Shown piece by piece: positions 2,678 through 64,000 of a stretch of DNA of 64,000 nucleotides. Made by a program: the position numbers and the translations under genes. The stretch spans positions 4,154,001-4,218,000 of the forward strand of contig NZ_CP091036.1 of NCBI RefSeq assembly GCF_021535135.1, given 5' to 3'. The notes under the pieces were generated by a model, which was given only the letters and a program-made list of their open reading frames with translations, did not search any database and was not told where the DNA came from. The stretch comes from Antarcticibacterium sp. 1MA-6-2 (GTDB taxonomy: Bacteria > Bacteroidota > Bacteroidia > Flavobacteriales > Flavobacteriaceae). Within the stretch, counting starts at the first letter, position 1. Each line of letters begins with the position of its first letter.

Positions 2678-2751
2678 GCGGGAGTAGCTCAGTTGGTAGA
2701 GCGTCAGCCTTCCAAGCTGAATGTCGCTTAGTTCGAACCCGGTCTCCCGCT
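2678..2751 (+). tRNA. tRNA-Gly (anticodon UCC)
   Basis: The cloverleaf is clear. The acceptor stem GCGGGAG pairs perfectly with CTCCCGC, the D-arm is GCTC...GAGC, and the anticodon stem TCAGC/GCTGA encloses a loop with anticodon TCC at 2711-2713. The T-arm as written is defective: it is one base too long, and CTTAG does not pair with CCGGT. If the string GCTTAGT at 2726-2732 is read as GCCGGT, the T-stem becomes GCCGG/CCGGT and the length becomes normal. That is the same RCCGGY artefact that breaks the protein genes in this window. Discriminator base T; no encoded CCA. Confidence 0.92.
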
Positions 2752-2754
2752 CAT

Positions 2755-2780
2755 AAAACCTCATCGCCAGATGGGGTTTT
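2755..2780 (+). terminator. Rho-independent terminator after tRNA-Gly
   Basis: AAAACCTCAT pairs with ATGGGGTTTT around a 6-nt loop, with T-rich sequence after it. It begins 3 nt after the tRNA. A very similar hairpin occurs again at about 2849-2875. Confidence 0.75.
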
Positions 2781-2826
2781 TCAATTTCATATCGGGTGAG
2801 AAACCTGTCCTGAGTGTAGCAGAAGG

Positions 2827-2875
2827 GAACCCGGTCTCCTGCTCTTAAAAACCTCATCAATAGATGGGTTTTTTA
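2827..2875 (+). repeat. Second copy of the tRNA-Gly 3' end plus terminator
   Basis: The stretch GAACCCGGTCTCCTGCTC followed by a TTAAAAACCTCATC...GATGGGTTTTTT hairpin repeats the tRNA 3' half and terminator at 2735-2781 with few differences. It has no acceptor 5' half, so it is a remnant, not a gene. The segment before it contains CCTGTCCTGAGTGTAGCAG, which resembles widespread intergenic palindromic repeats. It looks like the scar of a tandem tRNA duplication or of an integration at the tRNA 3' end; no integrase is nearby. Confidence 0.7.
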
Positions 2876-2890
2876 TGGAAATATTTATAG

Positions 2891-3805
2891 CTAAAAAATT
2901 GACAATCCTGTCATTGTGGTAAGTTTTTCCAAAGCTGCCATACCTAATTCAGAATTTCCTTTTTGATTAAGAATAGGGTTCCATACCGCCACCGAGTATT
3001 GATCGGGATGAATGGCGACTATACCCCCGCCAACTCCACTTTTCCCCGGCAATCCCACTTCAAAACTAAATTCGCCCGCTTCATCATAAAATCCGCAGGT
3101 TTGCATTAGAGCATTAATACGTTTTGTCTTTGTTCTGGAAAGGATTTTTTCTCCTGTTTCCAACATTTTTCCGTTATTGGCATAGATCATAAAAGCTTTA
3201 GCCAATTCTTCGCAGGACATAGCAAGGGAGCATTGATGAAAATAGAAGTCTACAATGGGTTCAACATCGTTTTTTATATTACCTAAAGCTTTCATATAAT
3301 TTACCAAAGCAATATTTCTAAAACCCGTAGATTTTTCTGAAGCTGCTATCTTATGGTCGTAGTTAATATTCTCGTCCTGAGTTATTTTTCGCACGAATGA
3401 AAGCAACTCCTTTTTGGGATCCTCGTAATTAGAGACCAGGATGTCACATATTACCAGAGCTCCTGCGTTTATGAAGGGATTTCGGGGAATTCCGTTCTCA
3501 TATTCCAGCTGCGTAAGGGAATTGAAAGGATCGCCAGATGGTTCCACATCAACCCTCTCCCATACGTTCTCTCCCAATAATTGCATGGCTATGGTTAAGG
3601 TAAATACCTTGGAAATACTTTGTATAGAAAATTTTTCGGTACTGTCACCAAAACAGAAATGTTCTCCTTTTCCAACATATAGATGCATTCCAAATTTTCG
3701 GGGATCAACTTTGGCGAGTTCAGGGATGTAACTGGCAACTTCTCCCTGTAGATCTATGTGACTTAATTCTTCGTAAATTGTGTTTAAGATCTTTTGGTAA
3801 TCCAT
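2891..3805 (-). CDS. glsA: Glutaminase A
   Basis: This is a 304-residue serine-dependent glutaminase (L-glutamine to glutamate and ammonia) of the beta-lactamase-like fold. The Ser-x-x-Lys pair is Ser63/Lys66 in FSIQSISKVF. Other conserved blocks are GDPFNSL, NPFINAGA and a glycine-rich GLPGKSGVGGGI near residue 260. Length matches the family (about 305). The frame is intact. Its ATG lies one base after the stop of pepE, so the two form an operon for recovering amino acids from Asp-containing dipeptides and glutamine. Confidence 0.96.
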   Translation of the reverse strand: MDYQKILNTIYEELSHIDLQGEVASYIPELAKVDPRKFGMHLYVGKGEHFCFGDSTEKFSIQSISKVFTLTIAMQLLGENVWERVDVEPSGDPFNSLTQLEYENGIPRNPFINAGALVICDILVSNYEDPKKELLSFVRKITQDENINYDHKIAASEKSTGFRNIALVNYMKALGNIKNDVEPIVDFYFHQCSLAMSCEELAKAFMIYANNGKMLETGEKILSRTKTKRINALMQTCGFYDEAGEFSFEVGLPGKSGVGGGIVAIHPDQYSVAVWNPILNQKGNSELGMAALEKLTTMTGLSIF

Positions 3806-3806
3806 A

Positions 3807-4517
3807 TTAATTTAAATGTGTAAGGCTGCTTTCCGGTTCTAACTCGTAAGGTACTTCATCAACCCGGAAAATTCTGGCGGAATGAATTCCTTTTAACGAA
3901 AATTTATCAGCCTTAACTTCAATCCAGCTTCCTTCTCTTAAACCCACTACCTAGTTGAGTATTTAAAGTATGGAATTCCTTGATCCTGGTTTCCCTTGTT
4001 TCTCCTTTATGTTTTGAGGTAGGATCGGGATCGAGGTAATGAGGATTGATGTTAAAAGGTACAATTCCCAGAGTTTGAAATAAAGGCGGATATATAATTG
4101 GCATATCATTAGTTGTTTGCATAGTGAGGCTTAAGCAATATTAGTTCCCGCACTGGTGCCAAGATAGGGGGTGCCCCTTAGGATAGATTCCCGCAGGGAA
4201 CTCATGATTTTGTTTCGGTAAAGTTTCTCAACCAGTAAAAAAGTATTACCTCCACCTGTAAATATACCTTCCGCATTATCTATTGCCAGTACAGGATCCT
4301 TAAATTCATGAAGACCTTTTATTCTTATATCCAGGCCTTCGAAAGCTTTCCTTACACCCTGGGTATACACTTCATGAGAAATCCCACCAGGCCGGGCATA
4401 GGGAATGAAAATCAATTCTCTGCAGTCTTTGAAGTGGTTAGTTATTTCCGGAATCAAATATTCTAAATATTGTTCACCGTGAAGGGTGGAGGTGCTTGCC
4501 AGTATAGCATTTTTCAT
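3807..4517 (-). CDS. pepE: Dipeptidase E (alpha-aspartyl dipeptidase), two apparent frameshifts
   Basis: This peptidase family S51 enzyme hydrolyses Asp-X dipeptides. The N-terminal part (ATG 4517) holds IFTGGGNTFLLV and the nucleophile motif GTSAGTN; the middle part holds QTTNDMPIIYP and INPHYLDPDP...GETRETRIKEF. The C-terminal part continues in the first frame with VGLREGSWIEV and ends at 3807. Both frame breaks coincide with strings that restore the family sequence if read as RCCGGY: GCTTAAGC at 4129-4136 (GCCGGC) and ACCTAGT at 3949-3955 (ACCGGT, giving PVVGLREG). I treat it as an intact gene with sequencing artefacts. It is upstream of glsA in the same operon. Confidence 0.9.
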
Positions 4518-62788: not shown

Positions 62789-62806
62789 AGAAAGTAGGCC
62801 CCTCCA

Positions 62807-62826
62807 GCTCCCCCGAAGGGGGAGAG
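62807..62826. repeat. G/C-rich hairpin repeat between trpG and trpD
   Basis: AGCTCCCCC-GAA-GGGGGAGAGCT-type hairpin in an AT-rich genome. Related C-run/G-run hairpins lie at 62877-62910 (inside the trpG 3' end), 63471-63489 (inside its 5' end) and 63550-63607. Confidence 0.65.
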
Positions 62827-62845
62827 CTAGAGAGTAGATTTTTAT

Positions 62846-63527
62846 TTATACTTCAGTTCGTATTTGAGAATTATTTGCTCCCTCCCCTTTGGGGAGACTT
62901 GGGGAGGGGCTTATTACCCAATTTTTGATCATCTTTTTACCATCAGGAGTAAGTACCGATTCCGGATGGAACTGAACTCCTCTTACGTCAAACTCCCGGT
63001 GCCTAAGGGACATGATCTGTCCGTTTTCATCAAAGGAAGTGGCTTCCAGGCAGGCTTAAATTTTTCTCCACAACCCAGGAATGATAACGCCCCACCTGAA
63101 ATGATTTTTCCAATCCCGAAAAAAGAGATTCGTCATCTACGATTGTCGTAACCGAATTAGCTACTCCATGATACACAGATTCCAGGTTAATCAATTTCCC
63201 CCCAAAAACTTCGCCTATTGCCTGCTGTCCCAAACATACTCCCAATATGCTCTTTTTAGGAGCATATTCCTTCACGATCTCTTTTAGAAGTCCGGCTTCA
63301 TCGGGTATTCCAGGTCCAGGGGACAATAAAATTTTATCATACTTTGCTACGTCTTCCAGGGTAATTTCGTCATTCCTGCGAACCGTAACAATGCAATCCA
63401 GCTCTTCCAGGTAATGAACAAGATTATAGACAAAGGAATCGTAATTATCTATAACCAGTACAGAAATTCCTTTCCCCGAAGGAGAAGGTATCTGCATGTC
63501 AGGACTATCTGTTTTTATATTCTTCAT
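62846..63527 (-). CDS. trpG: Anthranilate synthase component II (glutamine amidotransferase), one apparent frameshift
   Basis: The class I amidotransferase motifs are LVIDNYDSFVYNLVHYLEEL, SPGPGIPDEAG, the nucleophile in LGVCLGQQAIGE, and, after a frame change, VQFHPESVLTPDG with the catalytic His-x-Glu. The plus-strand text GCTTAAA at 63054-63060 has lost two bases relative to GCCGGTAAA; restoring it gives EKNLPACLEATSFDENG. The first 17-21 residues and the last 23 are unusual: both contain Ser-Pro-Ser-x-x-x-Lys-Gly stretches encoded by the G/C-rich hairpin repeat family. About 228 residues with these additions. Confidence 0.92.
62877..62910. repeat. G/C-rich hairpin repeat read through as the TrpG C-terminal tail
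   Basis: CTCCCTCCCC-TTT-GGGGAG-ACTT-GGGGAGGGGC forms alternative hairpins. On the minus strand it encodes Ser-Pro-Ser-Pro-Ser-Leu-Pro-Lys-Gly-Glu-Gly, fused in frame to TrpG after WVI. Confidence 0.65.
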
Positions 63528-63549
63528 TTCTTAATATTTTTATTTTATT

Positions 63550-63607
63550 CCCCTCCGCTGGAGGGGCAGGGGTGGTTCTCCCCACCGCTGGAGGGGCTGG
63601 GGGAGGC
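63550..63607. repeat. Tandem G/C-rich hairpins between trpE and trpG
   Basis: Two units, CCCCTCCGCTGGAGGGG and CCCACCGCTGGAGGGGCTGG, each fold into a hairpin. They fill most of the 117-nt gap between trpE and trpG. Confidence 0.65.
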
Positions 63608-63644
63608 TTTTTTCCTTCAGAAAGTCTGGGATAAACTTAGCATA

Positions 63645-64000
63645 TTATATATCTTCAGCAATTTCCATAGCTTTAGTTAAAGCTCCCAGTTTATTATAGA
63701 CTTCCTGTAATTCGTTTTCTTCATTAGATTCAGAAACTATTCCCGCCCCTGCCTGGTAATGAAGCTGGTGATTTTTACTCACGAAAGTGCGGATTATGAT
63801 GGCGTGATTAAAATTTCCATCAAAATCCATAAATCCAATTGCACCTCCATATGCACTTCGATTTACATTTTCATATTTCTCGATGAGGCTCATCGCGCTA
63901 TGTTTTGGAGCGCCACTTAATGTTCCCGCCGGAAAGGTACTTGCTACGACTTCCATAGTTCCTGTTCCTTTTTTTATAGCACTTAGTTACTTTGCTTACC
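63645..64000 (-). CDS. trpE: Anthranilate synthase component I, C-terminal part (runs off right end), one apparent frameshift
   Basis: The chorismate-binding C terminus is clear: VVASTFPAGTLSGAPKHSAM, YGGAIGFMDFDGNFNHAII, IRTFVSKNHQLHYQAGAGIV, then SNEENELQEVYNKLGAL. The frame changes at 63981-63987 (plus ACTTAGT); reading ACCGGT gives VSKVTGAIKKGTGTMEVV. The first gene of the operon visible here; the N-terminal part and any leader or attenuator are outside the window. Confidence 0.94.

What the first reader, a model, noticed from the sequence alone, without database searches (positions are those of the whole stretch)
2726..63987. Window-wide destruction of one palindrome, RCCGGY: footprint of an undescribed DNA modification
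About 27 breaks (frameshifts, two in-frame stops, one tRNA defect) are repaired when one short string is read as RCCGGY. Sites: 2726 tRNA; 3949 and 4129 pepE; 5837, 6001, 6568 secreted paralogs; 10608 methyltransferase; 11863 and 12214 kynU; 14307 SDR; 17399 kmo; 20140 lipoprotein; 20695 zinc-ribbon protein; 23155 lpxK; 26234 gapA; 29337 glycosyltransferase; 36882 psd; 42213 SRPBCC; 45868 and 46232 sugar dehydrogenase; 48773 TonB receptor; 52193 rluD; 53118 yaaA; 55848 pyc; 58956 trpA; 63054 trpG; 63981 trpE. Repair gives conserved motifs: GDRQ in Kmo, ITGQNIVADGG in the SDR, VVPVERGA, GKPAVTH in RluD, FTAGYPQPED in TrpA, IAGALA in Psd. By hand count only one RCCGGY is intact in 64 kb, against roughly 60 YCCGGY and a comparable number of other CCGG contexts. 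Real mutation cannot produce this in single-copy essential genes. The best explanation is cytosine modification at RCCGGY (methyltransferase, with or without a Cfr10I-like nuclease), misread by single-molecule basecalling.
Basis: partly seen in the sequence, partly recalled or inferred. Interest (0 to 1): 0.95.

Follow-up and report, generated by a model that had tools for sequence, protein, structure and literature searches.

The report
Methylated RCCGGY sites misread genome-wide
In this flavobacterial genome assembly almost every RCCGGY site is gone and many genes are broken where such sites belong; the breaks are likely sequencing errors at DNA that the cell's own restriction-modification system is predicted to methylate, so those genes are likely intact in the living cell.

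Summary
In 464 kb sampled from this 4.38-Mb genome, RCCGGY occurs 7 times against about 304 expected from its sister contexts; the other 12 NCCGGN contexts match five relatives. In the window 28 of 58 genes are broken, against 2 of 59 and 3 of 54 in two relatives, and 14 of 30 frameshifts fall on RC-(TTA/TAA/TAG/CTA)-GY strings (p = 1e-20). Over 464 kb, 78 of 175 such strings interrupt a frame, against 19 of 150 with outer bases swapped. I support 24 of the 27 listed sites.

The likely writer lies about 207 kb away: the only PF00145 methyltransferase gene found, overlapping a restriction-enzyme gene and near a Vsr gene, the make-up reported for NmeDI, which targets RCCGGY. Best reading: 5-methylcytosine misread by a single-molecule base caller. 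Such errors, and RCCGGY methylation, are known, so 'undescribed modification' is not supported. No raw reads were available: platform and chemistry are inferred. Identifiable misreads explain only about 119 of about 297 missing sites.

The parts
2678..2752 (+). tRNA-Gly(TCC), one base longer than in three relatives; altered string at 2726
   Evidence: (4 relatives read GCCGGT in these columns)
3949..3956 (-). frame break at an altered RC..GY string
   Evidence: three relatives
4129..4136 (-). frame break at an altered RC..GY string
   Evidence: three relatives
6568..6576 (+). in-frame stop, weakly supported
   Evidence: one relative at 45% identity
10608..10614 (-). frame break at RCTAGGY
   Evidence: three relatives
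11863..11869 (+). frame break at RCTTAGY
   Evidence: three relatives
12214..12220 (+). frame break at RCTTAGY, same gene
   Evidence: three relatives
14307..14313 (-). frame break at RCTTAGY; relatives read RCCGGY in these columns
17399..17405 (+). frame break at RCTAAGY
   Evidence: three relatives
20140..20151 (-). frame break at or near RCTTAGY
   Evidence: two relatives
20695..20701 (-). frame break at RCTAGGY; a relative reads RCCGGY in these columns
23155..23171 (+). frame break near RCTAAGY, placement uncertain
   Evidence: three relatives, placed at 23132, 23162 and 23171
   Evidence: three relatives
26230..26240 (-). frame break of a shortened form
   Evidence: three relatives
29337..29374 (-). 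frame break at or near RCTAAGY, placement varies
   Evidence: three relatives, at 29341, 29365 and 29374
30689..30694 (.). the single intact RCCGGY of the window
36882..36889 (-). frame break at an altered RC..GY string
   Evidence: three relatives
42213..42219 (-). frame break at RCTAAGY
   Evidence: three relatives
46232..46238 (+). frame break at RCTAAGY
   Evidence: one relative
48762..48779 (+). frame break at or near RCTTAGY
   Evidence: three relatives
52187..52200 (+). frame break of a shortened form
   Evidence: three relatives
53118..53124 (+). frame break at RCTAGGY
   Evidence: three relatives
55848..55855 (+). frame break at an altered RC..GY string; relatives read RCCGGY in these columns
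58956..58962 (-). frame break at RCCTAGY
   Evidence: three relatives
63052..63060 (-). frame break at an altered string
   Evidence: two relatives
63981..63987 (.). RCTTAGY where a relative reads RCCGGY; window end, frame not tested

Best explanation
The genome likely carries 5-methylcytosine at nearly every RCCGGY site, predicted to be placed there by its one detected C5-methyltransferase, and a single-molecule (probably nanopore) base caller likely misread those sites, which would explain the frame breaks in the assembly. Shown: the motif-exact loss in all parts sampled, the frame breaks at RC..GY strings, unbroken genes in relatives, and intact reading frames for a methyltransferase, an overlapping restriction enzyme and a Vsr protein at G000:C1:3943900-3946934, about 207 kb before the window. 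Inferred: that this cluster reads RCCGGY, that the mark is 5-methylcytosine, that the platform was nanopore without short-read polishing. The cluster would work as an NmeDI-like Type II system: M would methylate RCCGGY on both strands, R (an N-terminal part of untested fold plus a Type IIS-like cleavage domain) would cut unmethylated DNA such as that of phages, and Vsr would start repair of T:G mismatches left by deamination of the methylated base. In the commonest misreads the outer RC and GY stay and the inner CG becomes TTA, TAA, TAG or CTA.
For: Motif: 7 RCCGGY against 304 expected in 464 kb, only the four R..Y cells of 16 lost. Breaks: 28 of 58 genes against 2 of 59 and 3 of 54; 14 of 30 frameshifts at core strings, 1.0% expected, and 1 at swapped-context control strings; with G003 and G001 proteins 9 of 25 and 13 of 31; 78 of 175 against 19 of 150 over 464 kb. 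Alignment: of 165 relatives' RCCGGY sites the window keeps 0, while it keeps 31 of 210 YCCGGR and 41 of 214 YCCGGY; three relatives keep 12 of 144, 25 of 108 and 18 of 146 RCCGGY. Writer: one PF00145 gene, no PF01555 match; Type II restriction-enzyme model match 437.8 bits for R; Vsr; NCBI name 'modification methylase NmeDIP' on a relative 65% identical to M. Precedent: NmeDI with Vsr, RCCGGY; native nanopore data of N. meningitidis with 199 of 208 wrong SNPs at C or G turned to T or A, 152 of 208 at called 5mC, and 74.76% of wrong indels at or next to methylated sites. In seven other carriers RCCGGY has ratios 0.16 to 0.90 and ranks 1, 9, 1, 2, 5, 1, 2 of 16; in five non-carrier relatives 0.76 to 1.90 and ranks 8, 9, 15, 2, 12.
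Against: No raw signal, platform record or methylation data. M and R were not compared with the NmeDI proteins, whose sequences I did not obtain. Vsr was not found beside M and R in the four named relatives. Identifiable scars give an excess of only about 119 over 464 kb against about 297 missing sites, and unrelated strings also differ from relatives; the rest may be true avoidance or silent misreads. One carrier (G191) shows no avoidance (0.90), though its first 80 kb gave 0.56. None of six other carriers shows the misreads, so there is no second example. G011, taken as a normal relative, has a weak excess of broken strings (4 of 16 against 1 of 33, p = 0.034). 12 of 30 frameshifts are not at such strings.
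Confidence: 0.88

Rival explanations
1. The sites are truly absent: restriction avoidance has removed RCCGGY from the genome, and the broken genes are a separate matter of a poor assembly.
For: Six of seven other carriers of the M-R pair have ratios of 0.16 to 0.72, so some true avoidance is plausible; identifiable scars do not cover all the missing sites.
Against: Avoidance does not break frames, yet breaks concentrate on RC..GY strings and relatives read RCCGGY in the columns of five altered strings. A ratio of 0.02 is far below the lowest other carrier, 0.16 on only 20 kb.
Confidence: 0.04
2. The mark is real but is not 5-methylcytosine made by this gene: N4-methylcytosine, a bulkier cytosine or a backbone change made by another enzyme.
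For: Only PF00145 and PF01555 were sought in the genome. The misreads insert bases, more than single C-to-T calls. RCCGGY is exact, as for a sequence-specific enzyme.
Against: The one C5-methyltransferase found belongs to a cluster of the make-up known for RCCGGY, and 5mC alone is tied to mismatches and indels in nanopore data.
Confidence: 0.06
3. The changes are real mutations: the methylated sites are mutational hot spots that have decayed.
For: Methylated cytosine is prone to deamination (passage).
Against: About half of the genes compared are broken (28 of 58), and a tRNA; damage is confined to one palindrome with the outer bases mostly kept. Deamination gives single C-to-T changes, not insertions (established knowledge).
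Confidence: 0.01
4. An assembler or polisher replaced the string by a model error unconnected with any DNA modification.
For: The platform and pipeline are unknown; other indels at runs of one base also occur.
Against: None of eleven other genomes tested shows it comparably, and the motif equals the known target of a system like the one the genome encodes.
Confidence: 0.01

Closest known systems
Modification-mediated errors in nanopore assemblies (Listeria, PMC10687267; Klebsiella and others, PMC11610573; Neisseria meningitidis, PMC12506013)
   Same: Systematic errors gathered on a short motif of a lineage-specific methyltransferase; C/G turned to T/A and indels at 5mC in N. meningitidis.
   Different: Here the motif is RCCGGY, nearly every site sampled is altered, and the commonest forms carry insertions that break frames; those papers had reference reads, this case has none.
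NmeDI restriction-modification system of Neisseria meningitidis
   Same: C5-methyltransferase, restriction enzyme and Vsr together; target RCCGGY; Type IIS-like cleavage (passages; fold match).
   Different: Sequence kinship to R.NmeDI and M.NmeDI not tested; RCCGGB, also mentioned for M.NmeDI, is not the footprint here, since RCCGGG is untouched.
VchM of Vibrio cholerae and M.AvaIX of Anabaena variabilis
   Same: 5-methylcytosine at RCCGGY.
   Different: VchM is an orphan without nuclease; here M overlaps a nuclease gene.
Cfr10I / NgoMIV-type restriction enzymes
   Same: Target RCCGGY or GCCGGC (passage).

Membership tests
Modification-mediated sequencing errors | Errors gathered on one short motif | tested here: met
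   Only the four R..Y cells of NCCGGN are lost; 14 of 30 frameshifts at core strings
Modification-mediated sequencing errors | A matching modification enzyme in the genome | tested here: inconclusive
   One C5-methyltransferase in an NmeDI-like cluster; its specificity was not measured
Modification-mediated sequencing errors | Errors vanish in amplified DNA or short reads | not testable with these tools
   No reads available
NmeDI-type Type II R-M system | C5-methyltransferase beside a restriction enzyme | tested here: met
   PF00145 and TIGR00675 match; overlapping R with PADLOC REase_II match; pair kept in 4 of 4 named relatives
NmeDI-type Type II R-M system | Vsr gene in the cluster | tested here: met
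   PF03852 and TIGR00632 at L002:11515-11934; not found in the four relatives' loci
NmeDI-type Type II R-M system | Target RCCGGY | tested here: inconclusive
   Footprint exactly RCCGGY and moderate avoidance in other carriers; no assay
NmeDI-type Type II R-M system | Cuts on both sides outside the site | tested here: inconclusive
NmeDI-type Type II R-M system | Sequence kinship to R.NmeDI and M.NmeDI | not tested
   NmeDI sequences not obtained; only a database name on a relative
Cfr10I-like nuclease | Sequence or fold of the Cfr10I/Bse634I group | tested here: inconclusive
   No match; not among the rows, which excludes nothing

The most novel reading that the evidence does not exclude
The mark at RCCGGY is not plain 5-methylcytosine but a bulkier or further-processed cytosine made by this methyltransferase family or a partner, which is why nearly every site is rewritten, often with an insertion; a nuclease family of more than two thousand members would then stand beside an unrecognised chemistry.
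Probability: 0.05. Interest if true: 0.75.

Novelty: new member of a known kind. Interest (0 to 1): 0.42.

Why it matters
A deposited chromosome shows about half of the compared genes of this window as broken when they are likely intact, so annotation, metabolic reconstruction or pseudogene counts drawn from it would be wrong. The same scars act as a readout: from an assembly alone they give the exact modified motif and, with the gene list, point to an enzyme. That suggests a cheap screen of public long-read assemblies for methyltransferase targets, and a provisional target for the PF27126 nuclease family (2132 relatives).

Tried and rejected
A Cfr10I-like partner was considered and not supported. 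Recognition of RCCGGB, mentioned for M.NmeDI in the passage, is rejected as the footprint here: RCCGGG is untouched. An N4-methyltransferase was sought with PF01555 and not found; other methyltransferase families were not sought. A search of plasmid records with R gave 155 records with partial matches, none covering 80%, and no NmeDI sequence among the 15 rows listed. The Foldseek search of R alone gave nothing at E 0.001 or better. A second misread genome was sought among six carriers and not found. Paper searches: nanopore, methylation, systematic errors and RCCGGY together gave no paper; nanopore and RCCGGY gave three, of which I opened PMC13201069 only, whose four RCCGGY places concern VchM; the other two I saw as listings. 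The first NmeDI search was swamped by unrelated words. A composition scan for enriched R..Y strings was uninformative beyond the scars.

Papers: passages only of PMC11610573, PMC13201069, PMC11649196, PMC7973814, PMC4081073, PMC8112702, PMC4654547, PMC12506013 and PMC10333322; passages and the discussion section of PMC10687267. The original NmeDI paper, seen in a reference list, was not read.
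Full report
What was checked. The window lies at G000:C1:4154001-4218000 of a single contig of 4,383,004 bases. The nearest genomes held are of the same genus.

The motif loss is exact and found in every part sampled. In the window RCCGGY occurs once against 64 YCCGGY, 45 RCCGGR and 72 YCCGGR. In 20 further stretches of 20 kb spread over the chromosome it occurs 6 times. Pooled over 464 kb: 7 against 304 expected from the sister contexts (p = 3.7e-65). Splitting CCGG by both neighbours shows that only A..C, A..T, G..C and G..T are lost; the other twelve contexts agree with 400 kb of five relatives within about 13%. The five relatives have RCCGGY at ratios 0.76 to 1.90. The rest of the 4.38 Mb was not read.

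The genes are broken where the motif belongs. Relatives' proteins were aligned to the window with a script that allows frameshifts. After removal of overlapping shadow frames, G011 proteins show 30 frameshifts and one stop in 58 genes (28 broken); G003 proteins 25 and 4 in 48 genes (21 broken); G001 proteins 31 and 0 in 50 genes (26 broken). The controls between relatives give 1 to 2 frameshifts and 2 to 3 broken genes in 45 to 59 genes. Of the 30 frameshifts 14 lie within 9 bases of an RC-(TAA/TTA/TAG/CTA)-GY string, 1.0% expected (p = 1.2e-20); 18 lie at a wider set of such strings, 2.4% expected; 1 lies at control strings with the outer bases swapped. With G003 and G001 proteins the core counts are 9 of 25 and 13 of 31. 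Twelve of the 30 are elsewhere, some at runs of one base. Without any protein comparison, over 464 kb, 78 of 175 scar-type strings in coding-like flanks interrupt all reading frames, against 19 of 150 controls; none of six other carriers shows this, and of five relatives only G011 shows a weak excess, 4 of 16 against 1 of 33, p = 0.034.

At 165 places where a relative has RCCGGY and the flanks align, the window keeps it 0 times, while it keeps 31 of 210 YCCGGR and 41 of 214 YCCGGY; three relatives used as targets keep 12 of 144, 25 of 108 and 18 of 146 RCCGGY. At 2726, 14307, 20695, 55848 and 63981 a relative reads RCCGGY in the very columns of the altered string. At 2726 this is a tRNA-Gly gene, 75 bases against 74 in three relatives.

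Known counterparts. NmeDI of N. [quoted passage not shown] it cuts on both sides of its site and is called a symmetric Type IIS enzyme. A relative 65% identical to M carries the NCBI name modification methylase NmeDIP. 5mC at RCCGGY is also reported for VchM and for Anabaena M.AvaIX. Native nanopore assemblies of N. meningitidis show 208 wrong SNPs, 199 at C or G turned to T or A, 152 at called 5mC, and 74.76% of wrong indels at or next to methylated sites; a PCR-based kit removes the problem. That paper names no motif in the passages I saw. The scars here, where the inner CG becomes TTA, TAA, TAG or CTA, fit that drift.

Does the family avoid RCCGGY elsewhere? In seven other carriers the ratio is 0.49, 0.90, 0.54, 0.72, 0.65, 0.65 and 0.16, and RCCGGY ranks 1, 9, 1, 2, 5, 1 and 2 among 16 R-core-Y palindromes; in the five non-carriers the ranks are 8, 9, 15, 2 and 12. 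The value 0.90 was 0.56 in the first half of that sample, so this support is moderate. It bears on the balance: the excess of the three clearest scar types is about 79 + 25 + 15 over 464 kb, against about 297 missing sites, so part of the loss may be true avoidance and part silent substitution.

Verdict. It is most likely a technical footprint of ordinary RCCGGY methylation by an NmeDI-like system, read in unpolished single-molecule data. It is not evidence of an undescribed modification, though the chemistry was not measured.

Noticed in passing
window 38534, 49989, 62336, 43130, 53046: Frameshifts not at RC..GY strings; the first three at or beside runs of one base, typical of unpolished long-read assemblies.
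   Followed up: partly
L002:5885-7286 and 11939-12493: The R-M cluster is flanked by a serine recombinase split over two overlapping frames and a short tyrosine-integrase-like protein, which suggests a mobile or once mobile island.
   Followed up: no
window 30689; L005:15392; L011:7340 and 11170; L017:19861; L021:2218 and 4683: The seven intact RCCGGY sites of 464 kb; six of the seven begin with ACCGG. Whether they are unmethylated or merely read correctly is unknown.
   Followed up: no
G000 samples, 464 kb: RCCAGY/RCTGGY is in excess (735 against about 610), possibly in-frame misreads of the same sites that break no gene; other unrelated strings differ as well.
   Followed up: no
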